This document shows, one piece after another, positions 154-34,021 of a DNA stretch of 64,000 nucleotides (its first letter is position 1; every line of letters starts with the position of its first letter). Source of the stretch: Panagrolaimus kolymaensis (Eukaryota > Nematoda > Chromadorea > Rhabditida > Panagrolaimidae); contig JAJQJQ010000021.1 of NCBI GenBank assembly GCA_028622995.1, positions 2,170,001 through 2,234,000 of the forward strand. The letters run 5' to 3'. The position numbers and the translations under genes are program-made. The notes under the pieces are model-generated. The model saw only the letters and a list, made by a program, of their open reading frames with translations. It was not told the origin of the DNA and ran no database searches.

Positions 154-3100
154 TTAAATATTATTTAGCCCGTCAATATTATTATTATTTGTCCAAGGTG
201 TGGTTGTAGTTGTAAACAATGATGATGACATCGTCGTTGCTGACGCAATGGGCGACAAAGTTGACGAATTTGTTATTGTTCGATTATTATTTGATGCGGC
301 TGTAGTTGTTTGAAAGGGTGAAAATCCCCCAGATAATGCCATCATAACAACAAATATTACAACGGGAATAGAAAGAAATAATACAACAAAAAAGCATTTA
401 AAAAATACTCGATATCTTGATACTCGAGTTGGAGATTCCGATGCGAAAGAAGCTGAAAAAAAATAATATTCAGGGATTAAATATAAAAACAAACTCCAGC
501 CGGATTTTTGTTTTTGGTTTTTAAAGAAAATTTTAAAACTGATTTTCTTATCATTGAAAGGCTTGAAGCCCTTTGGATAAAGATTTAATTTTTAAACTTT
601 AATTTTACAGAAAAATAATAAACTGAATCTTTTGTTTGTTCAAATATTTTAACTTTTATGTAAAATTCGAAACTGTGTATTTCTTACAGAAATTCGAAAA
701 GTTTTGCAATAAGAAATTTACCAATATTTTTTCATCATAATTAAATTTTTTAAACTGTCTTCTTACATATAGCATTATCCAAAAGCTTACTAATTTCAGT
801 ATTTTTTGTTGTTGATAAAACTGCGATGAAATGTATCGAATTGCGCATATTAAAAAATTATTAGCTGTCAAATGGAATTAATTGAACAACTTTTTTTAAC
901 CAATTATTAAAACTGAGGTGGAGTGGACAATTGGAAAGAAAAAAATATTTTTGGAAAAACTTTGCTTTGCCAATAAAACGTTTTTCTTTCTTTTTTTTGA
1001 AATTTTTTTGATAACTGAATAAGCGCTTGTAAGCGTGAATACACAAAAAATTTAAAATATTAAGCTTGCAAAGCATTTTTCCTCTTTAAAATTTTTTTAA
1101 CTGTTCTTGTGCTCTTCCTTATTTTACTAATCTAATTTTATTTTTTTATTCATAAAAACTGCGGGAAGCTGTTACGATTTGTAATTATTAAAAAAATTAT
1201 TAACTGTCATTGCGAACGAAACCAATATAGCAACCAAAAATACTACTACTTCATGTAACCGATATAAAAAAAAATCAACTTATTTTATTTTTTTCCCCAA
1301 GAAAACATTAAAAACTGTTTGATAAGTGTTGATACAAGTTTTTATCAAAATTCTTTAAACTGTAATTTCTTTCTTTCTCTTTTCAGAAATTTCATTTTTA
1401 CATAAAAACTGATTCCCTATTGCTTAAAAAAAACTAAAAGTAATCTGTTGGTTTACATTTTTTTAAATAAAATCAAATATTAAAAAACTGTATTTGGTTG
1501 TTTGGATGTTTGAATTTTGAAACCTATTTAAACTTCTTTAAACTTTTTTACATTTTGTGGATTTAAAACAAATTATAAAAAACTGAATAATAAATGTCGC
1601 TCACCAGCTTTATTTCTAATAGGTTCACTAACGCTTGTCATCATTTTAACTGGAGGACTTCCAATTTGCATGGTATCTGGCACTCGATTGGTTGATAATA
1701 AAGTGGCATTAGAAACTTGTAAAGGAGGTAATTTAAATCGATAATGAGTAGCAGGTAAACTGGGAATTCCTGCTCCCCCCGGTGGTGAACCACTTTCCAT
1801 ATCTTCGAAACTTTCTTCAGCGATGGTTGGTGGGCGAGAAATAATGATGGGTTCGGGATAATTGCTCACCGATGGCATAGTTGGTGGCTGGAGAAATGTT
1901 ATTTGTGGCTAAGGAATAAGAAACTTTGACTATACAAACAAAAAATATTTTTTGAAAGGGGCTATCGTCAGAAAATAAAGATAAAAAAAAGTATTATTGG
2001 TTTATCGAGAGCGCGCGCTTTTTAAAATATTTTTTTACAAATTTGGTCGAGAAAATGAAAGGAAGAAACTGATATATAAATATTTTTTTAAGTAACTGGG
2101 AAGTGAGTTTTCGAAAAGATGATTAATTTAATTATAAGATTTTTTTAAAACTAAAAAAACGATAAGCCATTTTTGTAGATTTATTTTATTTGATAAGGTA
2201 AGAAATTTAAACTGACATGGTGAGCTTTTTTGGGTATTTAAAAAAGAAGCAACTATTGTGCCTTTTTTTTTTGTTTTATTATTGAAACTGTAAACCTTTA
2301 TATAAAGGGGGAAAATAAGTAAGTTCGTTGGTAAGCAACTCATAAAGTTTTTTTGAAACAAAACTGATAGGAAAGTTTACATGATGTCAAAAAGTAAATG
2401 GCTTGTTAGAAAAAATTTAATTAAAACAAAACATAAGCGTTTCGAAAAATTTTAATATTTATTTATAAAACTGCGTGCTTTTTTGTTTGTTGGAGCCCAA
2501 TAATATATTTGGATAAAAAAAACTGAGAGCATTTTTCGTAGTCGGAAAATTTATTTAATTTTTAATTTAGATTTTTTAACTGCGATGAAAATTAAAAAAT
2601 AATATAAAAAAACTGGATGGAGCGCTTTTCTTTTAATCTTAAACTCGCGCGTTTAATTTCCTAAAGAAAAATACTGAAAAACTGTGCTTTAAATTGTCTT
2701 TTTTTAAACTTTGGGTTAAGAATAATAAAACTTAAAACTAAACATAAAAAAGGCTTTTTACTCAAAGAAAAAAAATAATTATAACATTTTTTCGTTTTCT
2801 TTTTTTGCAAAAGTTTTTTTTCTTTTGCATATTAAAAAAGTTTTTTTCTTACATGTTGCATCGATGGTGGAGTATATTTTCTTAATGTTCCCGCATGTTC
2901 TGTATGCCGACGAGTTATTCTTACTGTAGATGGAATACCTGTGACATTTGAATTTCGTGTAGGCTCAGCAGGTGAAACTTGAACTTTTATAGGTGATACC
3001 GTATGATGATTTCCATGGGTTTTAGACGAAGAAGAAAAAGACGGAAATTTAATGTTTGAAAATAAATTTCTTCTATCGCTTGCTGCTTCAGCTTCGTGTA

Positions 3101-3338
3101 AATTTCTTTTATTTGCTGCTTCAAAATTTGGTGGATTTTGATTGTTATTGGAATAAAAAGTCACTGGTACACTTATTTTTCTATTTGGAGGCTGATAAGA
3201 TGGTGGAGGAATGGACCCAGAATTAAAATTATTTCCATATAACTCTGTCGTCGTCGTCGTAGTTGTTGGAGATGAAGGTGAATGGCTATTTTCGTGATGA
3301 TTATTCCCATGATGGGAAGAAATAGAAAATACTCCCAT
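154..3338 (-). CDS. Predicted single-pass (type II) membrane protein, Ser/Pro/Asn-rich
   Basis: Three exons read on the minus strand: 3338-2853, 1908-1605 and 452-154, joined by GTAAGA/TTAG and GTGAGC/TTCAG splice sites with matching phases, giving about 360 aa. I do not recognise the family. There is no N-terminal signal peptide. The first ~260 residues are low-complexity, rich in Ser, Pro, Asn and His, with a T-tract. Near the C-terminus a basic stretch (RVSRYRVFFK) precedes one hydrophobic helix of ~22 residues (FFVVLFLSIPVVIFVVMMAL). A Ser/Thr/Asn-rich tail with N-glycosylation sequons (NRT, NSS) follows. The positive-inside rule predicts a cytoplasmic N-terminus and outside C-terminus. 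Both introns (~0.94 and ~1.15 kb) are packed with the AACTG motif in antisense orientation to the gene. The start at 3338 has no upstream in-frame support beyond the ATG itself, and a further 5' exon is possible. Confidence 0.72.
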
Positions 3339-4222
3339 AATTTAAAAATAAATATATAAATTTTTTTCTATAAAAATAATAATAAAACAAATGTTTTAAA
3401 TTGTTAAACAAATAAAATAAAAGAAAATAAAGAAAGGACGGAAAATGAAAAAAAAAAGTACAAAAAAATATTTATATTCTCGCGAGACAATGACGAGAAA
3501 AAAACTTAAACTTTTTTTTGGTTTCAATAATAAAAAAAAATAGAGCAAAAGAATTAATTTATATTCCGCTTTAAAAAAAATGTATGCTTTCAAATTTTTC
3601 AAACAATCAAAAAAAGTTGGAAGAAAATTATTACTTTACATGAAAAAAGTCAAACTGACTAGCATTTCATTTAATTTTTTTTAATGTTTTTGTAAAGTCG
3701 GCAAAAAATGGGAAATAATAAATTTCTAAAGGCAGGTAATACAACTTAAGCCTGGGCAAAAGGAAAGAAGGGAAAAAACAAGCTGTTGTTGTTAGTTGGT
3801 AGTTATTAGTTGTTGTTACCTAGGGAACAATTATTATTATTTTTTGATATTAAGCTTTAAAATAAAAAAAAAATAAATCGTTTTATTTTTATTTTTTTAA
3901 CTTTCACTTTCATTCAAAGATTATTTAGGGTGAGTGAGAAAAGAGAAAGGCAAATAAATTTTAAAATTCATTAACAAAAAATTTAGAGAGAAAAAAGAAA
4001 AACAAAAAATATTTTTGTATCGTGCGTCATAAAGAAAAAAAAAGTGACCAAAGTTCAATGAAATTATAAAACTGGGAACTTGCGTTACTTCAGCCGCTCA
4101 TAAAAATGATTAGGGTTTTTATTTTGGAGATGAAAAAGATTTGTGCAGACTATGTAATGATAAAAAAAACTGTAGAAAAACGAGTATGTTAGTGAGAGAA
4201 AAAAAAATAAAAGTTTTTTTTC
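3339..4222. other. Non-coding region upstream of the membrane-protein gene
   Basis: I see no open reading frame of coding character. The stretch holds poly-A/poly-T tracts, GTTGTT-type low complexity near 3785-3815 and a few AACTG units. Promoter elements of the minus-strand gene should lie here, but I see no clear TATA box. Confidence 0.4.
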
Positions 4223-4223
4223 T

Positions 4224-4294
4224 GCCTCATGCTAGAATTGAAAGAGCAACTTTCTATTTACTAGATAAACACTCTGCCACTGAGCCAATGAGGC
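4224..4294 (-). tRNA. tRNA-Thr (anticodon AGT), possibly degenerate
   Basis: The minus strand folds as a 71-nt tRNA. The 7-bp acceptor stem GCCTCAT/ATGAGGC is perfect. The D-stem is GCTC/GAGT with one G-U pair. The anticodon stem TTTAT/ATAGA has one G-U pair and a CTAGTAA loop, giving anticodon AGT (Thr). The T-loop TTCAATT is canonical. The A-box-like TGGCTCAGTGG is present. The T-stem is weak: the two pairs next to the loop (C/T and T/C) do not match, so it may be a recent pseudogene or a weak gene. An A/T-rich stretch with runs of T follows on the minus strand and could serve as a Pol III terminator. It sits inside the AACTG array. Confidence 0.72.
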
Positions 4295-6049
4295 TGAAAG
4301 TCCAATGATTGTTTTCAATAATGGAAATAAAATAAAACTGCATTCACAGAACTTTAATTGAGGCTTTAACCAAAAAAACTGAGCAATATTAAAAATAAAC
4401 TAAAAAAACTGTTTACAATAAAAATAAATTATTTAGCTAAGGTCGTTAATAAAACTGATGGGATTAATTAAAATTGGCTACGCAAGTATGGTTAGAAACT
4501 GAATATAAATCCAAAAACTAAAACACTTTTTTGATAAAATATTAACTGGAAAGTATTATAAAAGTTGGACAAAATCCCAAGAGATAACTTACGCATCATA
4601 TTTTTATTATTTAAAACTGCAATATGGGTGTGACGTTTAATCGAGAATTAAAACACACACCATCTCAATTTTTTGACTATCATAAAAAACTGTATCTCTA
4701 TGGTCTCCCTTTAAAGTAATGGCTTTCCCAAAAACTTCGTACCATTCATCGCTTTTTTTCTTCGTTTTTTACCATGGTTATTTATTTTCTTGTGACTTAC
4801 ACACATATGTCATAAAACACCATATTATTTAATTATCTTTTACACCTGGTATTTATTTTTTGAATGTGAAAATAAAGTAAAATAAAAATGAAAGTGTGTA
4901 AAACACCTGTGTACTTGTAGGGATAAGGAGAAAAAAATATTATTTAAAATACAGCTTTTCCACTCTTTGGGGAGATATGGTTGTTTAAGTTTTTAGTCAA
5001 AAGTGAAAAAGTTGTTCAATGAATTAAGAAAAAAATAATTTTAAAACTGTGACGGTTGACTTTTGAGGGTGAGGATAATAATAAAAAATGGGAAAAGAGC
5101 AAAACAGAAAACAAACAAAGATACTTTTCACAAAATTTTTATTTATTAAAAAAACAATAACTGCGTGTTTGAAAGGCACTGTAAAATTTAATATTACACA
5201 GCGTAATCATGGCGGAGTAGAGGTGGACGCAAAAAGTTACGTTAAGAAAAATTTTTTGTTTTTTAATCAAATTGAAATTTGTTTGTACGAAACGATAGCT
5301 AATATTCTAATTTGAAAAACGGCTGGAACAGAATTTTTTTAAACCCATTCCATATTTTTTAATTAGGCGTTAACTATTAAAAAATCATTAAAAAATCCAA
5401 AAATTGCACGTTGCGTTTGGCCATTTGTACTCCGCCTTTGATTGAAAATGATTGCGCTGTGATTAACACATTTTAAATTTACAGAAGAAGAAAAAACTGC
5501 AGAGGTGTTTACATTGTTGAAATTTATAAACTTTTTTTTCGTAACTTTTGATTTATAACTGTTTTCTTAATTAAATCATTGTGAAGCCATAATTTATAAT
5601 GCCAAATTTTAATGGCCATGATATTATTTAAACTGTACACTTGAAAAAAAGTTTTAATTGAAAACAAAATTTTGCTGAATTTTAAAAACTGGTCGAGCGA
5701 GACAAAGATTCAAGAATTATTATTTTAAACTGTTTTATTCAAGAGAAAAACATTATTTGTAATATCAGAAAACATAAGATTGATTGAAAAATAATAACTG
5801 ATGATGTTGTTGGAGAACATTGTTTATTTTTTTTAACTGGAGGAAGGCGCTGAGCTAGTGATATTAATTCAAATATTTTAAAAATGTATAAACTGTTCAA
5901 AACAAATTTTTTTATAGTTTTTTTATTATTATTTAACTGCGGCGAAGCAAAGGACGTCGATGACTTTTTTATAGTTTTATTTTTAATATTTCAACAAAAA
6001 AAAAAGCTAACTTTAAACTGTAAAAGACAATGATAATTTAAACTGAGGA
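4295..6049. other. Gene-free AACTG-array stretch
   Basis: I see no coding exon. Apparent ORFs (such as 5088-5315 on the plus strand) run through array units and have no recognisable composition. The array continues with units roughly every 50-100 bp. A possible splice donor (GTAAGT) lies at about 4588 on the minus strand after ATGATGC, but I could not connect it to any exon. Confidence 0.45.
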
Positions 6050-6251
6050 TCAGCTCGTTTTGATTGACATTAAAGCATATGAGCCAACACTCATTAAAAC
6101 AAATCCTACAACCATGGAAAGAAATACAAGCATGGTTTTTTGAGATGTTGGAGCAAGAGGATCACCAGCTATAAAAAAAGAATTTTTTATTTAATAAACT
6201 GTTTAACATTCTTCTGGACGGAAACTTACATGGTTTTCTTAATTTAGACAT
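6050..6251 (-). CDS. Small single-pass membrane protein (46 aa), two exons
   Basis: Exon 1 is 6251-6230 (ATG TCT AAA TTA AGA AAA CCA T) and exon 2 is 6168-6050, joined by GTAAGT and TATAG across a 61-bp intron with phase 1 on both sides. The product is 46 aa: a short basic start (MSKLRKP), a linker (SGDPLAPTSQK) and one hydrophobic helix (MLVFLSMVVGFVLMSVGSYA), ending in LMSIKTS. I cannot place it in a family; it resembles tiny subunits or assembly factors of ER or mitochondrial membrane complexes. It is too short for default ORF finders. An AACTG unit sits within its intron and another abuts the stop codon. The clean splice sites and strong helix argue for a real gene. Confidence 0.6.
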
Positions 6252-7697
6252 TTTAAAAATTTTTAAACTGGAAGAAATCTTTGTTTCATAGACAACAAAC
6301 AAAAAGAAAAAATCAAAGTTTCACTGTTATCAATTTATCGATTATATGTATGTGCGTGCATTTTTTATGTCTCAAAAAGGAATGAATGCTCGATAAACTT
6401 TTTTAATTTTTTAAGCTTCTTTTAAATTCACTGTTACGAGGTTTCCAATTTTTGGATTATTTTGTCTGTTTAAAAATATTTAATGTTTATTTTTAATTAA
6501 AACTGTCTTTGATATCCGTTTTCAGAATGTTATTTTGCATAATTAAATTTAGAAAGTGAAAAATTGGGACGTGTGGAATGGAATAAAGATTGAACATCTT
6601 ATAATCAGAAAAAAAAACTGTCAAAAATTGATTAATTTTAAACAATTATGGAAAATTTTATAGTTTTCTTAATTTATTAAACTGGCCTTTGCTAAACTTA
6701 TATTAGCTTGTAAAGATTTTAAAAAACCATTTCGATTAACTGCGAGAAGTTCTAAAAACCGGGCCCGATTGAAAATATAAAACAAAACATTGAGGAATAA
6801 TGAAACTGTAGCATTTAAACATAAAATTCGTGCAAAATCTTTTGTATATCGTAAAAATATTTATGAATATTAAAAAAACTGTCATTGTTGTAATTTTTAA
6901 CATTTTTAAAATTAATAAAAAAAACTGTGTTATGTCGTGGAGAATTGTAATCGTCAAACAGAACGCAAAAAAAAAAAAGAAAAGAAAAGTGAAATTTTAG
7001 TGTATTATTTTATTTAAACTGTAAGTTCCTTATTTGTGGGTTTAATGTTTGCATAATTAATAAACTGTAATAATAATAGCATTGTCTTCTCAGGAAAAAA
7101 TAGATAAAGAATTTATTGCCAATTAAAAACTGACAAAAACATTTCACAACAATTTATTGAATAAGAAAAATTTCCACTTCGATTATTTTTATCATTTATA
7201 AAAATTTATAATAAAAAACTGTATCGGATGTACCGATTTGAATTATGTAAACTGAATACGAAACACAAATAAAAATCAGAAATCTTTCTAACTTTTTTTA
7301 TTTAACAAAAACTCTAAAATTTTATTCTCCATTTCTCTTTCAATTATTATTATTTTTATTAATCTGTTTGGATGCTGTTTTATTATAACTTATAACCTCA
7401 ATTAAGTCAATCAAAAAAGAAAGAAAAAAGCCTTTTTTAACAAAATAACATCTAAAAGTTGACAACAAATAAATATTTCATGAAAAAAGTAACAAAATTT
7501 AAAACCTCCTCTATCATTTGCAAAAGCGTGGTTCTTGCACAGAACAACACAAGCACAAATTTTAACCCAATATTTTTTTATTGCTTTTTTTCCAACTTTG
7601 ATTCTTTTTTTTTTTTTCAACGTTGTTTCTTAGCATTTTCATCGCTATCGTTTTTTACATATCTAACTTTCATCTTTTAGTTTATTATTCGTTCATC
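6252..7697. other. Intergenic AACTG-array stretch
   Basis: I see no convincing exon. The array is continuous to about 7250 and stops before the TPR gene. The last ~300 bp before the ATG at 7698 lacks array units and probably contains the TPR gene promoter; no clear TATA box is visible. Confidence 0.4.
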
Positions 7698-9239
7698 ATG
7701 TCGTCTAATCAACCATCTGCTGATAATATAGCTGTAAGTTATTGTTCATTTTGTTCATATCAATCTTTGGTTAGACATTTTATAAATTATTTTTTAGGTT
7801 ATGCAAGGATCCTCGACTCCAACATCAGATGATATTGATAAGGCTACTGCTCTCGCATTAGAAGGAAATGAATATATCAAAGCTAAGAAATACAATGAAG
7901 CAATTGAAAAGTATACTGAAGCCATCGCATTTTGTCCTTATGCTTTCCTGTTTTCCACTCGTGCTAATTTATATCGCTTTATTCATCAATATGATGATGC
8001 CATCAATGTAATACTTTTTAGCTTGTTAAAAAACCTTTTTATTTGTTTTTTAGGATTGTCGTACTGCGCTTGAACTAGATGCGAAATGTGCAAATGCTTA
8101 TTGTCAAATGGGACACACATTTTCTCATCTAAAGCGTTATGATGATGCAATTGAAGCTTTTAAGAAAGCCCTTGAACTTGATCCAGAAGATGAGCAAAGT
8201 CGAAGAGGTCTTGCTTATGTTGAAGAAAAGCTTGAAACTGTAAATTTTTATTCCTTTTGTTCACTCTTTTACCAAGTTTTTAGGCTAACCAAGGACCTTC
8301 GGCTCCAACATCAGATGATATTGATAAGGCAACAGCTCTTATTTTAGAAGGAAATCAGTGTATTAAAGCTACAAAATTCAATGAAGCTCTTGAAAAATAT
8401 ACTCAAGCAATTTATTTGGCTCCTGATGCTCTTCTCTTTTGTACTCGATCTGGAATATTTAACGCTCTTCATCAATATGATGATGCCATCAATGTAATAC
8501 TTTTTAGCTTGTTAAAAAACCTTTTTATTTGTTTTTTAGGATTGTCGTACTGCGCTTGAACTAGATGCGAAATGTGCAAATGCTTATTGTCAAATGGGAC
8601 ACACATTTTCTCATCTAAAGCGTTATGATGATGCAATTGAAGCTTTTAAGAAAGCCCTTGTACTTGATCCAGAAGATGAACAAAGTCGAAGAGGCCTTGC
8701 TTATATTGAAGAAAATCTTAAAGCTGTTAGTTTAAATTATTTCGGTTCATTTGGATTTTAATTCACTCAATTTTTAGAAAGAAATGTCAACTCCAACACC
8801 AGAAGATATAACAAAAGCTAATGCTCTCAAAGAACAAGGAAACGAATGTATGCAAGCCAACAAGTTTAACGAAGCCATCGAAAAATACACTCAAGCTATA
8901 GCTTTGAATCGTGATCCTGTTTATTTGTGTAATCGTGCAGCTGCCCATTGCCGCCTTAAGAAATATGAAAATGCCATTAATGTGATTTTTGAAATCTTTA
9001 TTTTTACCTTAAAGTGTGCAACATTTATATTTTAGGACTGTAATGCCGCAATTTTTCTTGATGACAAATATTCTAAAGCTCATGGTCGTTTGGGTTTCAC
9101 ATGTTCTTGTATTGGTAATTACTATTATGCTGTTACATCGTACAAAAAAGCTCTCGAATTAGATCCAACAAATGGAAATTACAAAGGAAACCTTGCTCTT
9201 GCTGAAGCTAAATGTCGTGAAGCTAATCGACGATCATAA
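7698..9239 (+). CDS. TPR-repeat co-chaperone-like protein (SGT/STI1-type TPRs)
   Basis: Seven exons: 7698-7733, 7798-8007, 8054-8239, 8284-8493, 8540-8725, 8778-8981 and 9036-9239. All are phase 0, giving 411 aa. Three tandem units each begin with a Thr/Pro/Asp linker (STPTSDDIDKA, SAPTSDDIDKA, STPTPEDITKA), then TPR helices: A-L-E-G-N-E-Y/K-K-Y-N-E-A-I-E-K-Y-T-E-A-I, a second helix pair with DDAIN, and a third TPR ending A-L-E-L-D-P. These are TPR consensus positions as in SGTA and STI1, which bind Hsp70/Hsp90 C-termini. There is no Gln-rich tail, no SGT dimerisation domain and no STI1 domain, so it is a TPR-only relative. Units 1 and 2 share a 46-bp intron that is identical base for base. 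A polyadenylation signal follows the stop. The gene is free of AACTG units. Confidence 0.9.
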
Positions 9240-9384
9240 AGCCTAATTGCTGTTTTTGCTTTTATTTTGTTATTTTTTTTGAGCTTGTGCATTGTTGTTT
9301 TGATCAACTTTTTTGTTAATTTATCATGTTTTTTTGTTGTTCTATCTTTTGTTTTTGTTTGAAGTTTATCATTTTTTGTTTGAA

Positions 9385-9390
9385 AATAAA
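9385..9390 (+). terminator. AATAAA polyadenylation signal of the TPR gene
   Basis: AATAAA about 150 bp after the TPR gene stop codon, in T-rich 3' flanking sequence. It is the first canonical signal downstream of the stop. Confidence 0.55.
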
Positions 9391-9734
9391 GTTTTACTGT
9401 TTGTTTTTATTAAGTTTAATAAGCCTTTTTCACTATCATTTTTTGTATCCTATGCTTCATAACAAGTTTTCATTCAATCTTATGTGACAAATAAACTCAA
9501 AAATGTAAGGGAGGATTAGTTTCACTCGATGAATAAACAATTTTCTCATTTTTTTTGTTACAATCTTAGTTCATGTTTTTTGTAGCTAAATCATACGGCT
9601 AAAGCTTCAAATAAAAATATTCTTTTTTTTTATTGCTTTTGTTAAAAAGAGATTGAACATGGACACAAAGTTATCAATCAAAAAATTCTGCTAAACTCTT
9701 TAATATACTTCTTACATCTTTAGTTTATTTTAAT

Positions 9735-10082
9735 ATGTCAAAATTATGGGAAGTGATAAAACAGTTTAGTAAAGTTAATGGTGTGATCGGGGCGCCTATT
9801 GCATTTGGTAAAATTATTGGGCATCCAGCAACTGTTGTGGGAGCTTCGATGGAAGAAAAATTTTCTTTTGAACAAACAAAAAATACAAAGTTAAAATATT
9901 TCATTGTTCTGCCAACGCTGATTGGAAACAATGTTCGATGGTGGGAGGATGATATTGTATGGCTGAGTAAAACCAATGCATATCCAAAAAAATTTTTTAT
10001 TAGTAAAATTACCATTTTTATAATCATTATTTTCTTTTTTAAACTTAAAACTAAAACTGTTCCACGGTATCTGTCCGAATAA
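9735..10082 (+). CDS. Small ORF with C-terminal hydrophobic segment, uncharacterised
   Basis: An unspliced 115-aa frame with an ATG at 9735. The first ~85 residues look protein-like (VNGVIGAPIAFGKIIGHPA, then NNVRWWEDDIVWLSK), followed by a hydrophobic helix (ITIFIIIIFFF) and a basic tail. I do not recognise it. An overlapping 100-codon frame on the minus strand also exists, and the choice of strand rests on the better start context and the WWEDD-type motif. An AACTG unit lies in the last codons, which may mean that the true end is upstream or spliced. It is convergent with the Ly6-like gene at 10360. Confidence 0.42.
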   Translation: MSKLWEVIKQFSKVNGVIGAPIAFGKIIGHPATVVGASMEEKFSFEQTKNTKLKYFIVLPTLIGNNVRWWEDDIVWLSKTNAYPKKFFISKITIFIIIIFFFKLKTKTVPRYLSE

Positions 10083-23117: not shown

Positions 23118-23125
23118 TATAAAAA
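23118..23125 (+). promoter_or_regulatory. TATA-like box of the GPCR gene
   Basis: TATAAAAA about 55 bp upstream of the receptor ATG at 23180, the only such string close to the start. The spacing fits a core promoter with a short 5' leader. Confidence 0.4.
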
Positions 23126-23179
23126 TGGATGCAAGATTTTGTAATTTTAGACACAAGAAGAAATTTTTAAAAGAAAAAA

Positions 23180-26100
23180 ATGAATATTTCTTCAACAACT
23201 GAGAATTTATTAACTGATATTATTTCAACGATGAGCCTTGAAAATGGTGTGGAATCGACTGTAGAAACTGCTCAAATGGAATGCGGCGGAAAAAATGAAG
23301 CATATGATTTTGCTCGATTTGCTTTAGTTACATATGTTGGAACTCCCATTGCATTACTTGGCCTTTTATTTAATGCTTTTTTAGTTGTAAGTTTCTTTAT
23401 TTATTTTTTAAACTGCGGGTTGCTTTGTTTCTTGAGGATTAGCGGTATTCATATCCATATTTTAAAAAAAACTGAATTACGGTGTTGTATCTTGGATGCG
23501 CATGTATAGCTTTTTGTTAAAAACAAAGTTCAACAAAAAATAAAATTGAACGCCATTACGCATAAAGCTAAAACCATAAAAAAATTCATATAACTTTCCA
23601 TTTGGATGTAATTATTAAAATCAAAAAACTGAGTTAACGAGCTCTTCTCTTCCTTTAATTAAATTTTGAATAAAACTGAGTGTGGCGGAGATGCGGGGAA
23701 AGATTTTTATTTTATGCTTTTTTGGTTGTAAGTTGTTTTTGAGTTTTTTTAACTGTTAACTTTGGTGTTGCGACAATCATATACAATGATATATCAAAAA
23801 ATAAAATTTTATTTAAAAAAAACTGCAACCGGGTTTACCTTATGCTTCTAGCTAAAGTACAAAGTTTAATAATAAAAAAAACTGGATGAGTTTGCATAGA
23901 ATTGCGCTAATTTTTCATAATTTTTATAACTGATCTTCGAATCAATAGATAAATTAAAAAACTGTCGTAGTCATCATCTCTCGTCTTAAATTTGCTGGGG
24001 GAAAATATGAATGATTTTTAAATAATGCTATTTTGGCTAAAAGTTTATGCTTTTTTCTAAACTGTTGTTTAATGAATATACATTGATAATCATTACTAAT
24101 AATATTCCATAAAATTTATAAAATAAAACTGAATTACGAAAATTTAGAAACTATTAATAAAATAAGTTTAAATATTTTTATAATAATAAAAACAGTTTAA
24201 AAAGTTTGAGATTGCTTCTACGAAGCCACAAACTTGTTATCTTTTTATTTAAAACATATTAATTTAACTGGAAATAATACTTTCTCACCATTTTAAAACC
24301 CTTGAAAAAAAACTGCGGTTTGACTCGGTCATCATATTTTGATGATAATTCCAAAAAATCTTCAAAGATTGATTAATCAAGCATCGAAGTGATCACAAAT
24401 GATTATAAACTGTACGAAAAACAAAGCCACAAACAAAAAACTAATCAAATTTGAGTGCGCAGGCTAAAAGAATAATTTTATAAATAGTTTATAACTGCGT
24501 TTGAAGGAAATTTTTGAAATAAAAAAAACTGGAATTTTAGTTGCCGCCTTTGCAAAATTTGCGTAAAACACATGTAAAAAAGTTATCACCACTGTCAATT
24601 TAATAATAGCTGTCTTAATAAATAAAATAAATGTAAAAAAATTTTGAGATAAATATTTAAAAACTGTAAAATCATTCAATGAAAAATAAACTTTTTATTT
24701 TATTTATGATAGTGTAACTGAATCAAGTTTTTCTCGAAATTTTAAGAAGAACCTTGCACTTCTATAGATATCGTCCTTAATTTATTTTTCATTTTTTTTT
24801 CATTCTTTTTTCAGTCATTCATTCCATTTTTTTGATTTTATAATCCAAAATTTTTTAACAAAGAAGAAGACAATTCGTTTGCTTTTTGGATCTAGATTTA
24901 TAAGCTCCTTTATGGGACCTGGATCTTTAAGAATCTTTTTAGGATCTTTAATAATATTTATAGGTTCTGGATCTTTAAGATTCTTTATAGGATCTTAATT
25001 TACTTTTATGGGTTCTTTAAGATTCTTTTAGGGATCTGGATCTTTAATTACCTTTATGGAATCTGTATTCATTATTGGATCTAGATCCTTTAACGTTTTA
25101 AAGAACTTCAAAATTCACACTTTTATATGATTAAATTTTGTTGCTTTGAAAAACAAGTATCGGTAGTCGAGTGGTCCGGAGCTGCTCGTCTGATCTGGCA
25201 GTTTACCAAAAAAGTTCGAACCCTCCATTGGTCGAAAAATGAATGAAAAAAAATAAAAATAAATTAAGGACGATATCTATAGAAGTACCAAATATTGTTT
25301 GTGTGCAGAGGTGTTCAAACGCTTCGCTTGCGAACGAAAAGAGAAAGTGAAGCGATGAATTTTGATAAGAAAAGAGAGAGAAAGGAGAGAGAATTTGGCG
25401 CGAATTTGAAAAAAAGAGAGAGAAAGAGAGAGAAACGTCTCTTTTTTAAAAGCGTTCCTTTCTCTTTTTTAAAAAGAGATGCAATTCTCTTTTTTTTAAA
25501 GAGATGCAACGCTTGCATTCAAAAAAATGAAACAAATTTTTATCTTGTTAAAAAATATCATTTATTTTTAACTTTTATTTTTTTATGCGATTTATAATAT
25601 TGTAAACATAGATTTTAAAAAAAATTTACATATTTTTCTTAAAGATTTCGATGTTCTCCAGGTGTTACATTTTCCAGACATCTGCGATGTTTATATTTTC
25701 TTTTTTTTCTTATTTTTCTTAATATCCTTATTTCGTAATTATTTCTCTTCAAACTTTAGTCATCATTTTTTGTTGTTGCCTATAACCCTATTTCAAATTT
25801 TCTTTCTTTTTGCGCGCCATCGTTAGTGGCTGTGAAAGTAACCTTTATCGATTATTTGGATTTGGAAATAAAGTTATTTAAGACAAACCTCGCCGACAAC
25901 ACACAACACTTTTGTTCCTTCAATTTTCCGAACTCATTGAATCAGATATTTTATTTTAAAAATATATGTATATATATTGCTTTTTTGTTTTGCCAAGAAA
26001 CTTAACTATTATTTTTTGGTATTTTTAGTAATTTTTATTTATTTTTCTCTCAGTCTTTTTTAACGCTTTTTTTTACTTGTTTTAAAAAGTGTCGTTTAGG

Positions 26101-29100
26101 TATTGAACTTCTTGAAGCTATCTGAAAAAGATTTTAACAAAATTGATATCGTGCTAAAGAAAGATAAAAATGCTGAACATTGGATTAATTTTGTAAAAAT
26201 TCGAAATAATATTGTTAATTTACAAACTTTTCTTCTTGTTTTTTCACCCTTTCAAAAGGCAATAAGAATGCTTGAAGGGCAAACATCTCCCACAATCCAA
26301 TTAGTCTTGAAAGCTGTATATGAACTTGAAACCCATTTTTCCTCTTTAATGAATTCATCAAATATCTTAGAAAAGAATTTGGCTTCATCTTGCTACAAAG
26401 TTTTATTGTTCAAGAAAAAATCATTAATCACTGAATCACATTATTTAGCCATGATTTTAGACCCGTCAATCAAGAATGATTTATTGACATTAGTTGGTGA
26501 AGAAAATTTCTTAAAGGCAAAGAAATTATTTGAAGAAAAAGTTGGAAAAAATAATATTGATGATAGAGCCATTGTTCAACCACCGAGTAATCCTTTTCTA
26601 AACGAAATGGGAAATGAAGTTCATGTTGAATTATTATCATATTATCATGTTACAGTTGACCCAAATGGATTTGATTTATTAAAATGGTGGAGGGAAAACG
26701 GCACAAATTATCCTCGAATTGCAAAGCTAGCACGAGAAATCCTTTGTATTCCAGCGTCGTCTGCTAGTATCGAACGTCTATTTAGCTCCCTCAAATTGTT
26801 AACACCGGCAGAAAGAAGTACTTTGAAAGAATCAACTATTCGTAATTATATTTTATATCGTTCTTTATTGCTTTTTTATTTTAATATTTAAATTTTCAAA
26901 TTTTTAATTATATAATTGCATCGATAATAAACATAAGTAATCCTTTCATTTGTAACGAAAAAATAAATCTTTTTGTATAAAAAAAATCATCTTTGTCAAA
27001 GAAAAAATAGGAAAAGAAAAGCCATCTCTTTTTTTTAAAGCGAAGTCATCTCTTTTTGCTAAGCGCGCTTAGCAAAAAGAGAAAAAAAATCTCTTTTCAA
27101 AAAGCGTCTCTTTATGGCAAGCGTTGGTTGGCTAAGCGCGCTTCTCTTTAAAAAGAGATTGAACACCTCTGTTTGTGTGACTCAAATTCGAATTTGCTCA
27201 TTTTGAAGCAGAATTAAAAAAAATTTATAAATAATTTAAAACTGATTAGCGACGTTCCAAAATTTTTAATAAAAAGATTAAGATTTTTCGATGAAAAAAG
27301 AAACTGAGATTTTCTTTCAACAATTATTGATTACACAACTTAAAACAATTATTTTAAATATCATTTTTTTGTATAACTGAGCTTTTCAAAGATGGGATTT
27401 TTTAAAAATTAAATAACTGTGTGCATTAGTGATTTCTTCTCAAAATTTGAGTCAAACTTTATATTGAAAAATATCTCAAGATGACAATTTTATATCAGCT
27501 TTTTTTGTTGAGTAAAGCAAAGCAAACCTTTTAAAAAAGTTTGTATTAAAATATTATAAAAAAGAAACTGAAAAACTTTACAAAGACTTAAACTTGTTGT
27601 CTTCATATTTAATAAATTAATTTAACTGAGTCCATTTTTCTCACCATTGTAATTAGAAACTTGAAGAAAAAAAAACTGTTCATCATTTAAACATATTTTT
27701 GCGATAATTATTTACAAAATTTCATAAATAAATTAAAAAACTGCATTGTGATTGATTTTAATTCTAAAAAGGAGTTGTTTTCTTTGTTTGAAAAATCCAA
27801 AAAATAAGTTCCTTTTTTTCCAGAAAGTTTTTTCCAAGAAAAAACGTTTACAAACTCCAACATTTTATTTATTTCTTCTTGCAATATTTGATTCTCTGAT
27901 TTGTTTAATATATATTCCATTTTTTACGATTGATGCATTTGCAATTTATTTTAAAAATGAACAACTTCATCATATTTGGCATTGTTATGCTATGATTCTT
28001 TATGGAACCAGTCGAGTTGGTAAGGGAGATGGGGCTTTTTTTATTTTTAACTGTACAAACGAAAAGATAATTGACTCTAAAAAATTTTGTTATTTTAAAC
28101 TGTGACCAGGATTGGAGATTTAGCAGCTTTAAAAAATTAATTTTTTACTTTTTGAATTTAACTGTGATTCTTGAATTCCATTATTTCAGTTCAATTTGCT
28201 TCAACTTATATGATAGTTTGCGCCACGATTGAACGATTTATTGTTGTTGGAAATATTAAATGGCTTTCATGTGTTTCAACGTAAGGGTTTTTTTAATTTT
28301 TTTTTAAAACTGGTTTAGAATTTACTTGCAGGGAAGTAGGCCGATATGGTACCGCAACAATATCTTTATGCTTCATATTTATTTTACGTTTACCAGCATT
28401 TTTTGATTATAAAGTTATTTATTTACCTGGATGCCCAAGCTTTGAAGTATGTTTTTGTTTTAATTTGAAACTGCAGGATAAGAAAATTCGCGAAAATTAA
28501 ATAACTGTTTTTCGGAGCTTAAAATATATTAAAATATGGTTAAACTGGGGAAGGTTTTATTTTGCGGGACATGAATCGTGTTTATTTTAAATAATTATTT
28601 AACTGTCATTTCATCTGATGATGGTTAAAAGATAATACATTTTTAATAGTTGGAAATCTTTTTAACTGTCACTCACTGATTTTTTTTATTTATAAACTTT
28701 CTGTGGAATCGAAAAATCCAAATTATTTTTTAAAACTTTTATCACCGTCATCTCTGTTTTCTTTCCGGTCATATGGGTTTAAAAAATAATAACTGCAGGA
28801 ATATTTTTTTCATATCGTTAATATTCTAATTAAGGATTGGTTAAAACTATGAGAATGAGTGTTTTTGAACATTGAATTCTTTTTAAATTAAAAGTTAACT
28901 GTTCTTTAGAATTTGTTCGTGTATTAAAAAAATAAAATAACAATTTTTGAAATTTTATGTTAGTGTTTTTTAACTGTATACGTTTTCCTTGCTTGGCCTT
29001 TTTTTAAATATAAAAACAACAAAAAAAATTAAACTGATTACGACGATATGGTTGTCATAACTTTATCTAACTTCTTTTTTTGCTTGTTTTATGGGTTTAA

Positions 29101-32100
29101 AAATGTAATAACTGTGTTGATTTCTTTTCTTTCATAAATATTTAGAATTTGTAGTTTAATAAATTGCGGAAAAATGCTTTTTTTTAATAATTAATTAACT
29201 GTGGCTTAAAGCAATTTGCGGATTAAGAAACAAAAAATTCTTATGTTTTTTATGGTGAATTTATTTTAACTGCGTTCATGTTGATAAAAAGATTTTTAAC
29301 TGTAAATTAAATTTATTTTAACTGCCAAATTTGGCATCTTTTTATAGTTTATTAACTGTTGCTCAACAAAGAAGTTGGGTTTAAAAAATTGAAAAATAGT
29401 GTAGTTTTATTATTAATGTCTTAAGCTCCCTCCACCGGAATGTCATAACTTTTTAAATTGTAATTTTTTAAAACTGAAATGGACTTTTTTTGCATAACTA
29501 CTTTTTTATTCGCCATGTTTGAAAATTAAAAAACTGCGTAATGAACATAAGTAATTTGAGTTCGATTAAATTTTGAAAAAGTGCGTTTTTTCGGGCCACA
29601 AATTTTTTTAATAATACTAAACTGATATTTCTCAGATGTTTATTGGTTAAAATGCCCTAAATTTCTGAAATTTAATTGATAGTAAAAACTTTTTAAACTG
29701 AAAAGTATAAATTTTATTTTATTTTTTCAAATTCAAATAAATTAAATTTTTTTTAAAACTGTGATCTTGATTTCTTTTTTTGTTTAATACAAACCTTTCA
29801 TTTTTTAAATTTTTTTGCAGGATTATACTTTTGATCCCGTACTTATGAGCAGTGAAGAATACGCAAAATTTAATTTTTATGTCATATCTGTTGTACATAT
29901 TATAGTTCCATTTTTGCTTTTACTTTCATTAAATCTTTTAATAATTGCGTTAACAAAGAAACGAATATATCATCATTTTGGAATTGCAAAAAATTTTGTT
30001 GATATGCCTCAAATTTCTTCATTACTTCGAAAAGGTAATAATTTTTTTTAATTTTTTACAAAAATCTTTAAACTGTATAATTTTATTTTTTTGATGGGGT
30101 AAATTTTATTTTAGAATCTATTGTATCAAATCGTAAACATCGAAGTGAATTAAGATATGCCACAAGAACGATGGTTACTATTGTATTTACATATTTATTT
30201 TGTAATGTTTTTAATGTGTTTATTACTGTAATGGAAAATGTTTTTAAAGGAAATTCATTAATGTTTAATGAAGATGGATCAAGGTAAGAAGGGAATAATG
30301 GTTTTTTTTAAACTGTGACTTCGTGATTCAGGGCTTTTTTTAAATTTAAAATACAATTTGGAACTAAAAAAAACTGTAGTGAATTATTCCTTTATTTTTT
30401 TTAAATATTAAACTGCATTAGTGTTGTTTTGTTTACACCGAGTAGTCTTCTTTTATTTTCTTTTTTTAGTGCTTTTATAAGCAAAATAATTACAAAATAA
30501 TAAAGCGCTGGCTAAAGAAATTAGCAGCTTGAAAAACTGTTGTACATGAAAATTTAAGGAAATTTTTTGCATTATAAAACCATAGGTATTAATGCAATTA
30601 TTACATTTGAAGATTCTTTTTTTTATTTTTTATTATAAGAAAGTTTAAACTGGTACGACTTGCAATCATTTAATTTATTTAACTGTAGATCAAAAGGCAA
30701 TAATGCAAGGGATGAATGCCTTGGTTATTCCATAAATTTTTTTTAAAAACTGCATTGTCATCTGTTAGGCCTTTTTTTCAATCAAAAAAACTGAATTTAC
30801 TTCACCCAGATATGAATTCCACAGAAAACTGATATCTCAAGGGCTTTTAGGAATTTTTTAAATATTAAAACTGTGTTTGTACCGAATGGTTTTTTTAAAA
30901 CTGTCGCCGTAAATATCATTTATTCATTTTAAACTGTATATGAATTGCATCTTATTTATATATCGTTAATGATGATTAATCTTTTGAGGAGTAGGGTTTT
31001 TAGAAGTGAAAAATTTGGAAAAAGAATAATTAACTGAGGAATGCATTTTTCTCTTTTTTTAGAAAATTTAAACTGTAGCAAAGAAAAGAATCAATTAATT
31101 TGTTAAACTGGAGACTAATAAGCATCCTTAAAAAAAAAGAACGACAGAGTTTATTTATAAATATTAAAAACTGTCATTTAGAAATTCTTTTTTTTTTCGC
31201 TTTAAAAATTTCATTTATTTCAATTAAAATATAAATTCGACAAAAAAAACTGAAAATTCGATTGCTTTTTAGGGGAGTTTTTTTCGTTTTAAAACTGTAT
31301 GTCCGCTTCTTATTGTAATAAATTTTTACACTCACTAATACGACTGACGTATCAAATTTATTAAAAAAATATTTAAATAGACCAAATGAAGGAATCCCTT
31401 AGTTAATTCTAAGGGTGGAAACGGGACGACTTTTTCACGTCCCGTCCCGTCCCGGGACCAAACTTTTCGTCCCGTCCCGGTCCCGGTCCCGGAAATATTT
31501 TTTTTCTTGTATTTTTGCCTTGGCACACCCTTTGTTTTTTATTTTTTTATTCAAATTTTGTCGTCCCGTCCCGTCCCGGGACGGGACCGGGACGGGACCG
31601 GGACGGGACGGGATTTTGAAAATAGTCCCGTCCCGTTTCCACCCTTAGTTAATTCATAAATAAAAAACTGCGGCAGGAATTAAAAACTTTTTTTGCTTTT
31701 AATCACGAATTTTATTAACTTTAATTAAATTAAAAATAGGTAAAAAAAACTGATTTATCCAATCCAATGATTTTTGGAGATTTTTTAAAATTAAAACTGG
31801 GAGAAATGTTGGCCGTTTGTTAATCCTTAAACTGTACTTGAATTTCTTGTCATTTGCATATAGTAAAATTTTTGTCAATTCGGCTTTTATGGAAGGAACC
31901 TTCGAAAATGATAAATTAACTGATGTATTCCATTTTTAAATAATTTTTTAATCAAATTTTAAATTATTACAAATTGCATTCTTTGAATTTATTAAAACTG
32001 TTTATTAGTACACAAGAATGCTACGATAAAAGCCTTAGTTAATTAGAAATTTTATAAAAAAAACTAACTTAGTGGTTGAGAATTGTTTGTTTTGAATTAA

Positions 32101-32656
32101 AAAGTATACTAGCTCTAATTTTAATAAATATAAATTGTGTGAGAAAAAAAACTGAATAGTCCATTGTTTGTTGTGGTTTTTCTAATTCAAACTGGGTTTA
32201 TATTTGGCTTTGCCGAGGTTGTATGATTTTAAACTGTCAGCTTGACTTTCTATGTAATACAAAAAAAATTTCAGCACCAAATTTTACACTTACACCGCTG
32301 ATTTAATTTCAATTATGGTTGCAATTAATTCATTTTTGCGAATATTTATTTATTTCTTTTGCAATCCCCAATTTCGATTTCAAGTTTTAACGAATTTTCG
32401 ATTTATTTTTAATAAAACAAAATCCGTGGTTCAATGTGAAGAAAATTGTTATCCATCAAATGAAAATTCGTCATCCAATGGTCCAGCAGAAAATTCTCCA
32501 ATTGTATTTGAAGAAGGTGAAGAAGCTATGAATCTTAGAGAAGATGAAACTCCTCCACCTCGAAGAAGTTCGCGTTCAAAAAGTCGAGCGGAAAGAGGCA
32601 GTGTCACATTTGATACAAGCACTTCAACCAAAACCGGTGATACTTGTTATTTATAA
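23180..32656 (+). CDS. Seven-transmembrane rhodopsin-class GPCR, probable neuropeptide (FMRFamide-type) receptor
   Basis: Seven exons: 23180-23386, 27824-28019, 28190-28280, 28332-28446, 29821-30034, 30115-30283 and 32275-32656. All phases match, 457 aa. The N-terminus is extracellular with NIS and TEN-rich sequence. TM1 is in exon 1, TM2 (TFYLFLLAIFDSLICLIYIP) in exon 2, and TM3 ends CATIERFIVV, an ERF in place of DRY. TM4, TM5 with a basic end (TKKR), TM6 after RSELRYATR, and TM7 (INSFLRIFIYFFCNPQFR), where NPxxY is replaced by RIFIY, follow. Cysteines before TM3 (HCYAM) and in the second extracellular loop (PGCPSF) can form the standard disulphide. This pattern fits nematode FRPR/DMSR-type peptide receptors; the ligand is unknown. 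The cytoplasmic tail is acidic then Arg/Ser-rich. Introns 1 (4.4 kb), 4 (1.4 kb) and 6 (2.0 kb) are swollen by array and transposons. Confidence 0.9.
24758..25286. mobile_element. Hairpin MITE with ~47-bp terminal inverted repeats
   Basis: The ends ACTTCTATAGATATCGTCC... and ...GGACGATATCTATAGAAGT are inverted copies over about 47 bp. The interior has degenerate tandem repeats of a GGATCTTTAAGATTCTTT-like unit (about 24885-25090) and a tRNA-like segment at 25159. No coding capacity and no evident target-site duplication. It lies directly beside the hAT element in intron 1 of the GPCR gene. Confidence 0.7.
25159..25233 (+). repeat. tRNA-derived sequence inside the hairpin MITE
   Basis: A-box-like TAGTCGAGTGG and B-box-like AGTTCGAACCC are separated by a tRNA-like distance, with a CTGC/GCAG hairpin between. 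The acceptor ends do not pair, so it is not a functional tRNA. It looks like a SINE-type Pol III head captured in the MITE. Confidence 0.5.
25306..27171 (+). mobile_element. hAT-superfamily DNA transposon with intact ends and 8-bp TSD
   Basis: A 1866-bp element bounded by inverted termini CAGAGGTGTTCAA (13 bp identical) and flanked by a perfect 8-bp direct repeat TTTGTGTG (25298-25305 and 27172-27179), the hallmark target-site duplication of hAT elements. Subterminal regions are packed with AAAGAGA-type repeats in both orientations. The interior encodes the C-terminal part of a hAT transposase. It sits in intron 1 of the GPCR gene in the same orientation. At under 2 kb it is shorter than most autonomous hATs and probably internally deleted. 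Confidence 0.92.
26103..26891 (+). pseudogene. hAT transposase, C-terminal fragment with dimerisation domain
   Basis: An open frame of 262 codons without a convincing ATG at its start. The last ~80 residues are the hAT family C-terminal dimerisation region: LLKWWRENGTNYPRIAKLAR followed by IPASSASIERLFSS, matching the classical WW...YP.L...A...L..PASS...ER.FS pattern. The upstream part resembles the helical region of the catalytic domain. The BED zinc finger and the first catalytic Asp region are missing, so this copy should not make a full transposase. It may belong to an internally deleted element. Confidence 0.85.
31410..31647. mobile_element. GC-rich hAT-like MITE with 8-bp TSD
   Basis: A 238-bp element with inverted termini TAAGGGTGGAAACGGGAC/GTCCCGTTTCCACCCTTA, flanked by the perfect 8-bp repeat GTTAATTC (31402-31409 and 31648-31655). 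The body is built from GTCCC/GGGAC hexamer and pentamer arrays in both orientations around a short AT-rich centre. It has no coding capacity. It lies in intron 6 of the GPCR gene and interrupts the AACTG array. Confidence 0.88.
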
Positions 32657-34021
32657 AATTGTTTGTTTTTTTATAGAGCAAAAAATATTTTTAATAAAAA
32701 TAAACATTTAAAATAACTGGAGACCTGTATTAATTTTATTGAACATCAATTTTCGGTTAAGAAAATCAAATCCAAGATTTAAGCGAAAGAAACTGTCAAA
32801 TATTTAATTTTTAAATTAATTTAAAAAACTGCATTATTGTGTATAAAAAAGTCAATGAATTTATTACAGACGTAAGATTCTGTAAAAAATTTGCGAAATT
32901 TTTCTTGAAGGCAATTTACTTTTTTTGAATGTTTAACTGACATGTTTTAATTTACGTAAGTGACCTATGTATGTCAACCTCCAAACGTTTTTTATCCTTC
33001 CTAGTAATTTTGATTGTGTGTTCGTTCGTTCGTTCGTTCGTTCGTGCGCACTTGGAAATCGATCATGGGAAAAATGAAAAGAAAATGAACAAATTTGCAT
33101 TAAAAAATGAATGAATGCGAAAGGAAAGAAAATGGCGTTCGCCTTTCTTAAAAAATGAAGCGGTGATGATCGGTCGTTTGTTTTTTGAAGAAGCAATTGT
33201 TGTTATCCAATGATCCAATAAAAAGAAAGAGATCCAAGAACCCAATAGCAATAGGAGAATCCAAGGAACCTTAAAAAATTTTTTGACATTAAAGAGTTCA
33301 AAGATAATATAAGATTCTATAGCAGTTCGCATGCTTTTGATTCGTTTAAAAATATCGTTAATTTTGGAATTAATTGTCCACGACCATGGAAAATTAAAAT
33401 CTCTTTTTTATATTGCCATGAAACAAGTTACATCGCTGGCCGTAGGCCGGCGGAGCTTCTAGTTTTAATATTAAAACTCATAGGAAAAAAAAGCTGAAAG
33501 AAAAGGCATTCAAAACGTTTTTGTTTGTCATCTCCATATTTCGATGGAACAAAAAAAAAAGAAAACTGGGAAAAACGAACATTTTGTGGTCAAAGTAAGT
33601 ACCAAGAAAATTACCCAATATCGATTTTAAAAAAGAGGCAATTCATTCATATACACACATATTTAAAAAAATTGAAAAAAAACAAATCAAGAAAAAAACT
33701 GACGGCTAAACTTTTTAAAATAAAAATCATAAAAAAATTTTTAAGAAACTATTGAAACTCTATTTTTTGCCGAAATCGTTTTTATCTTTTTTTTTCTTTT
33801 AAAAACTGCTTTAAAAATACTTTTATTATCTGAAATTGAAACATAGTTTAAACCATTCATTTCTAAGAATACAGTAACGAAAAAAAGCGGGGAAAACTAA
33901 TATAAAAAAAAGCTGCCTTTCAACAACGGAAATTTTCTTCAAAGAACTTTGTGGTTTACGAAGACTCAAAAAAATCAAGCGGATGGTTTAATTAACGATG
34001 ATGTATGTAATTAATTCATTT
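32657..34021. other. Array edge and low-complexity region
   Basis: The last AACTG units (about 32714 to 33808) thin out here. No supported gene. A GTTC microsatellite occurs at 33021. Confidence 0.4.
33021..33044 (+). repeat. (TTCG)n microsatellite
   Basis: Six uninterrupted TTCG tetranucleotides, a simple short tandem repeat. Confidence 0.85.

What the first reader, a model, noticed from the sequence alone, without database searches (positions are those of the whole stretch)
530..33810. Directional AACTG array over 33 kb: candidate array of single-motif small-RNA promoters or an unknown chromatin element
A/T-run + AACTG occurs roughly 8-15 times per kb on the plus strand but hardly at all on the minus strand, through genes of both orientations and across a 10-kb gene-poor stretch. 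At this base composition chance predicts well below one AAACTG per kb per strand. Spacing (about 40-110 bp) is irregular, and the sequence between motifs is unique, so it is not a tandem satellite. Exons mostly lack it. In C. elegans, thousands of 21U/piRNA loci are packed in introns and intergenic DNA, each driven by its own upstream core (CTGTTTCA) in A/T-rich context. Density, exon avoidance and a domain boundary here look alike, but the core is different. As I recall, piRNAs are reported lost in many nematode lineages, so a distinct motif would matter.
Basis: partly seen in the sequence, partly recalled or inferred. Interest (0 to 1): 0.93.

Follow-up and report, generated by a model that had tools for sequence, protein, structure and literature searches.

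The report
Motif array with hypervariable 19-base tags
In a roundworm genome, tens of thousands of copies of one short DNA signal, pointing the same way over long stretches, are each followed by a 19-letter tag that changes about twice as fast as the neutral DNA around it, which looks like a huge library of tiny RNA genes in a worm where the usual PIWI machinery was not found.

Summary
In detail: in window 1-33,900 AACTG occurs 274 times on + and 11 on -, against 15 and 24 in 34,001-64,000. The genome is most likely the triploid nematode Panagrolaimus kolymaensis (inferred). The array recurs in both homeologs of the window and covers roughly 8.9 Mb genome-wide, about 3 Mb per haplotype (rough estimate).

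Main new result, from aligning the three pseudohaplotypes: the motif is conserved (identity 0.956), but the 19 bases directly 3' of it are hypervariable (0.794; flanks about 0.89). 4-fold sites diverge like the spacers, so the tract evolves about twice as fast as neutral (416 sites, ratio 1.92, CI 1.79-2.06). It recurs in a separate 13 kb. The six one-base variants of AACTG with 34 or more pairs lack it; rarer variants are too few to judge.

Best reading: an array of small-RNA micro-genes, motif plus 19-21-nt payload, in a species with no detected PIWI, whose payloads diversify fast. It works like a nematode piRNA domain but is not one by the tests made. No RNA data were available: transcription is inferred.

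The parts
1..33900 (+). Part of the directional AACTG array inside the window (it continues to the left of the window)
   Evidence: 274 AACTG on + against 11 on -; first motif at 101, last dense motif at 33,804; homeologs dense upstream too
11235..11300 (+). Example unit: A/T box, AACTG at about 11255, 19-nt tract rewritten between haplotypes while both flanks are kept
   Evidence: three-way alignment printed (entry 11255); further examples there at 819, 11797 and 15573
33804..34409 (.). Right boundary of the array (last dense motif to the next, isolated one)
   Evidence: drop at about the matching place in C5 and C23
25306..27171 (+). hAT transposon copy inside the array, without any AACTG on +
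   Evidence: near-identical copies on several contigs, PF05699 in ORF 26100-26891, 0 AACTG
7690..9540 (.). Stretch with no counterpart in either homeolog, nearly free of motifs
   Evidence: alignment gaps; 1 AACTG in 7465-9700

Best explanation
A Mb-scale array of small-RNA micro-genes that does not depend on PIWI. SHOWN: a unit is an A/T box (about -16 to -1), the core (A/T)AACTG (0 to +4), a 19-nt tract (+5 to +23) richer in G+C than its surroundings, a G/T preference at +23/+24, and A/T-rich sequence from about +25. Units rarely lie closer than 30 bp and share one strand over long blocks. The core is conserved, while the tract changes about twice as fast as 4-fold sites and spacers. INFERRED: the core marks the start of a short transcript whose body is the tract; the GC-to-AT step pauses or releases the polymerase after about 20-30 nt; the simplest register is a 21-nt RNA from the T of the motif (5'-UG, +3 to +23), ending where hypervariability ends (a start at +5/+6 is the alternative); the RNA is carried by a non-PIWI Argonaute. 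For the fast change I favour (about 60:40) a mutational cause, the tract being mutation-prone because initiation or pausing happens there, over diversifying selection. Strand uniformity may avoid convergent transcripts at this density.
For: Fixed tract and offset. Pentamer dependence. Spacers at the 4-fold rate. Anatomy and GC-to-AT step; such a step at piRNA precursor 3' ends is linked to Pol II pausing in other nematodes (PMC6436959, passages). Non-overlapping units. Domain of about 3 Mb and about 24,000 motifs per haplotype, comparable to C. elegans (two 3-Mb regions, more than 15,000 loci) and C. briggsae (25,883 piRNA loci) as given in abstract starts. Precedent in clade IV: Strongyloides ratti has 21-22U RNAs clustered over 1 and 2.7 Mb of the X, AU-rich upstream, without PIWI (PMC9203780). 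Mutational cause: all 12 substitution classes up 1.6- to 3.5-fold, gap openings 1.75-fold, modest strand asymmetry.
Against: No RNA reads. No conserved 5' U beyond the motif's own T. Mature length and strand are guesses. S. ratti is reported without an upstream motif. Payloads show no excess match to the one transposon tested. The strand uniformity is not a known feature of piRNA clusters; C. briggsae clusters use both strands. Changes at neighbouring bases are not more clustered in tracts than in spacers relative to their base rates (2.65 against 4.93), and lineage unevenness is also seen in flanks, so burst-like rewriting is not proven. Pairs in which neither copy has the motif still show 0.151 (28 pairs).
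Confidence: 0.6

Rival explanations
1. A sequence-specific DNA hypermutation site without RNA product: a protein that recognises (A/T)AACTG nicks, melts or blocks repair over the next 19 bp, and error-prone resynthesis rewrites the tract, which is collateral.
For: Sharp tract next to an exact pentamer; every substitution class and gap openings rise; 12 of 84 ungapped units have one lineage at least 7 changes away while the other two differ by at most 1, against 1 of 112 downstream and 5 of 84 upstream windows.
Against: Does not explain why the motif is conserved, why units avoid overlap, the GC-to-AT step and the GG at +23/+24. Three AACTG sites outside the array are not hypervariable (4 differences in 165 cells; tiny sample).
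Confidence: 0.2
2. A protein-binding chromatin array (for example a meiotic pairing or centromere-like domain) whose bound complex covers core plus 19 bp and hinders repair there.
For: Mb-scale confinement to part of the genome, directional short motif, conserved motif with variable neighbour.
Against: Fixed strand over long blocks and a GC-rich tract of small-RNA length are not predicted; no 10-bp phasing of A-tracts or of unit spacing beyond the null 99% point.
Confidence: 0.12
3. Artefact of base composition, alignment or repeats.
For: The region is A/T-rich (about 74%) and holds some segmental duplication.
Against: Strand ratio 25:1 against near-equal outside; pattern counts 4572 against 175 and 226 against 0 for the reversed control; of 37 tested 5-mers only AACTG and overlapping words show a clear drop; effect holds with flanks at least 36 of 40 identical (165 pairs, 0.118 against 0.055), with base identity controlled and in a second region.
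Confidence: 0.03

Closest known systems
C. elegans type I piRNA (21U-RNA) domains on chromosome IV, Ruby motif
   Same: Mb-scale A/T-rich domain, one short motif per locus, thousands of loci, GC-rich to AT-rich step as at paused short transcripts, individual sequences not conserved
   Different: Core is AACTG and touches the variable tract instead of lying about 40 nt upstream (distance recalled); no PIWI detected; not like the U6 upstream box; one strand over long blocks; tract faster than neutral. I found no report of the last point for nematode piRNAs (searches named in Tried and rejected)
Strongyloides ratti 21-22U RNAs (PMC9203780: abstract, section 6 part 1, section 17)
   Same: Clade IV, no PIWI, 21-22-nt class, clusters of 1 and 2.7 Mb, AU-rich upstream sequence
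   Different: No upstream motif reported there; loci overlap heavily and lie on both strands; here RNA is not shown
Amniote pachytene piRNA loci (PMC9925758, abstract)
   Different: There driven by structural variants of 50 bp or more in long-precursor loci; here a phased 19-bp tract with base substitutions
C. elegans PATC (periodic A/T clusters; recalled)
   Same: A/T runs in introns and intergenic DNA of large domains
   Different: No 10-bp phasing here; a defined directional motif instead
Nematode meiotic pairing-centre repeats (recalled)
   Same: Short directional motif scattered over a large chromosome domain
   Different: No hypervariable tract of fixed length is recalled for them; binding proteins not tested

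Membership tests
C. elegans-type piRNA (21U) loci | PIWI-clade Argonaute (PRG-1) | tested here: not met
   A Piwi-like protein 1 fragment finds 41 matches, best 62 bits at 26-31% identity, spread over many Argonautes with no outlier; three Argonaute pieces are AGO-like or ambiguous. Exon-wise search of one fragment, so a strongly split or diverged gene could be missed
C. elegans-type piRNA (21U) loci | Ruby motif CTGTTTCA upstream of each locus | tested here: not met
   0 on +, 1 on - in 64 kb
C. elegans-type piRNA (21U) loci | Upstream motif derived from the snRNA (SNAPc) promoter element | tested here: not met
   16 U6 genes share an upstream box like TTGTCTGTC, not AACTG; AACTG occurs in the 150 bp upstream of 1 of 16 and outside the 90 bp printed
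C. elegans-type piRNA (21U) loci | Mb-scale clusters of thousands of loci | tested here: met
C. elegans-type piRNA (21U) loci | GC-rich body followed by AT-rich pause signature | tested here: met
   GC 0.22-0.39 at +5..+24, mostly 0.18-0.25 from +25 on
C. elegans-type piRNA (21U) loci | 21-nt RNA with 5' U | not testable with these tools
   no RNA reads on hand
S. ratti-type 21-22U loci | Large genomic clusters with A/T-rich upstream sequence, PIWI absent | tested here: met
   compared
S. ratti-type 21-22U loci | 21-22-nt 5'-U monophosphate RNA | not testable with these tools
   no RNA reads on hand
PATC | About 10-bp periodic A/T clusters | tested here: not met
   A- and T-run autocorrelation in the array has no 10-bp series and is weaker than outside
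Meiotic pairing-centre repeats | Binding by a HIM-8/ZIM-type zinc-finger protein (recalled) | not testable with these tools
   would need chromatin immunoprecipitation

The most novel reading that the evidence does not exclude
A germ-line diversity generator: a pentamer recruits a process that rewrites the adjoining 19 bp at about twice the neutral rate, so that each of tens of thousands of small-RNA genes carries a self-renewing, near-random guide. The worm would keep an ever-changing guide library without PIWI, made by motif-directed mutation instead of capture of invader DNA.
Probability: 0.3. Interest if true: 0.97.

Novelty: new variant of a known kind. Interest (0 to 1): 0.88.

Why it matters
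Clade IV nematodes are held to have lost piRNAs, and how they recognise mobile elements is open. A motif-phased array of about 24,000 units per haplotype would be a candidate source of primary guides and can be tested with one small-RNA library. The pentamer-dependent, faster-than-neutral 19-bp tract is also a mutational or selective signature that I did not find described (searches named in Tried and rejected), and a triploid clone with three diverged haplotypes is well suited to dissect it.

Tried and rejected
Tandem satellite: spacing irregular, payloads and spacers largely unique. PATC-like phasing: none. Helical phasing of unit spacing: periodogram peak 5.8 at a period of 12.5 bp, null 95% point 5.5 and 99% point 7.6; treated as noise. 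Copying among units: payloads share fewer 10-mers than spacer windows (252 pairs against 823, 630, 761; 851 units) and as many 14-mers (73 against 76, 73, 73), so no sign of cassette exchange. Transposon targeting: of 1422 21-mers, 21 sense and 20 antisense share a 12-mer with the hAT copy; spacer controls 46 and 31, shuffled payloads about 10; one low-power test with one element. Pairing inside the tract: best z 2.6 among many position pairs. Long one-way transcript or fixed replication direction: spacer skews small (AT 0.012, GC 0.013), not decisive. Depletion of the opposite orientation: 71 CAGTT in 220 kb against a Markov expectation of 97, mild, not claimed. Rfam at gathering threshold: only a tRNA in the window. 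Genomes of Panagrellus, Strongyloides or other Panagrolaimus were not searched: the genome tool states that this genome has no relatives here and, by their descriptions, I knew of no other collection on hand that would hold them.

Literature: (open-licence PMC library; mostly listings) showed no description of this array or of a faster-than-neutral small-RNA tract in nematodes. Most subscription journals are not held.
Full report
OBSERVATION. In window 1-33,900 AACTG occurs 274 times on + and 11 times on -, AAACTG 209 and 4; in 34,001-64,000 the numbers are 15 and 24, and 3 and 9. Motifs start at 101 and the dense part ends at 33,804. The finding is confirmed, with the start moved to the window edge and the mean density set at about 8 per kb.

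WHERE. The window lies in contig C20 of an assembly of 265.8 Mb in 807 contigs. The published Panagrolaimus kolymaensis assembly has 266 Mb in 856 contigs, 49 mitochondrial contigs, and three pseudohaplotypes (PMC10374039, passages); 856 - 49 = 807. The species is inferred from this match; no tool names it. Its place in clade IV is recalled (the related Panagrellus is called clade IV in PMC4323106). Homeologs of the window lie on C5 and C23, aligned at 88-90% identity; C419 looks like a second copy of the C23 stretch. C5 and C23 carry the array in the same orientation relative to the shared sequence, with the right boundary at about the same place.

EXTENT. Three AAACTG with gaps of 30-60 bases: 4572 matches genome-wide, 175 for the reversed control. 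Array DNA on hand has 109 such matches in 220 kb, which gives about 8.9 Mb of array, about 3 Mb per haplotype, and at 8.1 AACTG per kb about 72,000 motifs, 24,000 per haplotype. This is rough: most of the sampled stretches were picked as dense. A stricter pattern has 226 matches, 0 in the control. The 100 listed are on C3 (29, 6.90-10.01 Mb), C5 (35, 0.24-2.75 Mb) and C18 (36, 0.23-3.27 Mb). The list runs in contig order, so C1, C2, C4 and C6-C17 appear to have none, and the other 126 lie further on. Twenty 2-kb samples at chosen places on C1, C2, C4 and C3 below 6.1 Mb all hold 0-3 AACTG and 0-3 CAGTT. Of ten 10-kb stretches on C3, nine are strongly one-stranded with 69-101 motifs on the major strand; the tenth (L024) holds 22 against 5. 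Orientation switches between blocks along C3.

ANATOMY. Aligned on AAACTG (1417 units): GC 0.14-0.19 at -16..-5, 0.07-0.09 at -4..-2, then AAACTG; 0.22-0.39 at +5..+24; mostly 0.18-0.25 from +25 to about +50. GT at +6/+7 is 2.9-fold, GG at +23/+24 4.9-fold, and CGG at +22 is seen 42 times against 4 expected. Base -1 is A or T in 1750 of 1791 AACTG. Of 1781 spacings 53 are below 30 bp, followed by a broad plateau. A unit thus takes about 30 bp and units seldom overlap. The 1417 units include homeologous copies, so they are not all independent.

KEY RESULT. For each motif in one haplotype I compared the other two. Identity is 0.956 over -1..+4, 0.794 over +5..+23, 0.896 over +27..+50 and 0.892 over -25..-5 (780 occurrences; base by base). 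The drop holds within each base class (for A 0.817 against 0.916-0.917; for C 0.736 against 0.824-0.838). Among 37 five-letter words with two G/C and at least 120 occurrences, only AACTG and words overlapping it show a clear drop (ACTGT 0.793, CTGTA 0.811, ACTGA 0.831, CTGTT 0.845, weakly CTGAA 0.863; the next is 0.874). In a separate 13-kb stretch compared between C5 and C23 the tract is 0.760 and the flanks 0.85-0.88 (119 units; only four control words had enough copies there, two of them overlapping the motif). Pooled over 416 unit sites: tract 0.210, flanks 0.109 divergent, ratio 1.92, bootstrap 1.79-2.06; tract above flank at 77% of sites. With flanks at least 36 of 40 identical: 0.118 against 0.055 (165 pairs). 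4-fold sites of seven exon-like ORFs differ by 9.9, 10.4 and 12.0% (341-345 sites per pair), like the spacers: the tract is fast, the flanks are not slow.

SPECIFICITY (pairs of haplotypes sharing the word). AACTG: tract 0.207, flank 0.094 (743 pairs). AAATG (155) 0.059 against 0.074; AACTT (138) 0.061 against 0.073; AATTG (86) 0.064 against 0.086; AACTA (46) 0.064 against 0.062; AACTC (39) 0.036 against 0.064; AAGTG (34) 0.037 against 0.044. Rarer variants (10-21 pairs) scatter: ATCTG 0.071 against 0.036, AACAG 0.096 against 0.061, AACCG 0.052 against 0.042 and ACCTG 0.070 against 0.059 lie above their flanks; CACTG, TACTG, AGCTG and AACGG below; GACTG too few. CAACTG (8 pairs) 0.067 against 0.092, so A or T at -1 may matter. 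CAGTT read on the other strand (10 pairs) 0.008 against 0.033. Columns of true units were excluded for the control words, which lowers their values somewhat. Outside the array, 3 AACTG sites gave 4 differences in 165 cells: suggestive but tiny.

HOW THE TRACT CHANGES. All twelve substitution classes are raised, 1.6- to 3.5-fold; gap openings are 1.75-fold, although the fraction of gapped columns is not raised (0.106 against 0.119); equilibrium GC 0.33 against 0.27; strand asymmetry is modest. Some tracts look rewritten in blocks: of 84 ungapped units with the motif in all three haplotypes, 12 have one lineage at least 7 changes away while the other two differ by at most 1, against 1 of 112 downstream and 5 of 84 upstream windows. 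Against bursts: neighbouring changes on one lineage are not more clustered relative to base rate in tracts (2.65) than in spacers (4.93), and lineage unevenness (5.98 per unit against 2.0 simulated) is also present in flanks (3.8, 4.9). Motif turnover: of 310 unit sites 198 have the motif in all three haplotypes, 65 in two, 47 in one; pairs with neither motif still show 0.151 (28 pairs) against 0.200 with both, consistent with recent loss but not clean.

PIWI AND PROMOTERS. Argonautes are many (143 Piwi-domain matches, exon by exon, over three haplotypes). A Piwi-like protein 1 fragment finds no outlier: best 62 bits. Of three Argonaute pieces compared with solved structures, one is clearly AGO (360 bits against 58 for PIWI), one AGO-leaning (76 against 54), one ambiguous (62 against 60). 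The other fetched pieces were not compared. This agrees with reports of PIWI loss outside clade V and plectids (PMC6436959, PMC4323106, passages). The U6 genes have their own upstream box.

INTERPRETATION. The fixed 19-nt length, the one-sided position, the non-overlap, the domain size and the GC-to-AT step fit best with tiny RNA genes. Fast change needs a further cause; I favour a mutational one because indel openings and every substitution class rise together and because selection on tens of thousands of loci in a clone is hard. Both steps are inferences. What it works like: a nematode piRNA domain. What it is not, by the tests made: a Ruby-motif, PRG-1-dependent piRNA domain.

LITERATURE SEEN. 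PMC6436959, PMC4323106, PMC10374039, PMC9683057, PMC6367137: passages; PMC9203780: abstract, section 6 part 1, section 17; PMC9925758: abstract; all others: search listings with abstract starts. The Ruby-motif distance, PATC and pairing-centre facts are recalled.

Noticed in passing
window 38977-39468 and 46225-46617: Innexin (gap-junction) gene pieces just right of the array (PF00876); neighbouring ORFs look like more of the same.
   Followed up: no
window 40947-42929 and 50561-52899: A proline-rich secreted-looking protein and a second ORF occur twice in nearly the same form, so a block of about 2 kb seems duplicated about 9.6 kb apart.
   Followed up: no
window 4223-4294: A tRNA gene on the - strand inside the array.
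   Followed up: no
window about 31402-31654: A short repeat with internal inverted copies, matched on many contigs, MITE-like.
   Followed up: no
window 62758-63198: Cytochrome P450 exon (PF00067).
   Followed up: no
G000 C3:7752290-9048497 and C18:2369785-2458874: Seven of 22 listed U6 matches (five on C3, two on C18; some are weak) lie within the spans of the array on those contigs.
   Followed up: no
G000 C3:7151654-7152056 and 7166793-7167010: Listed unit sequences repeat at an offset of 15,139 bases, pointing to a recent segmental duplication inside the array.
   Followed up: no
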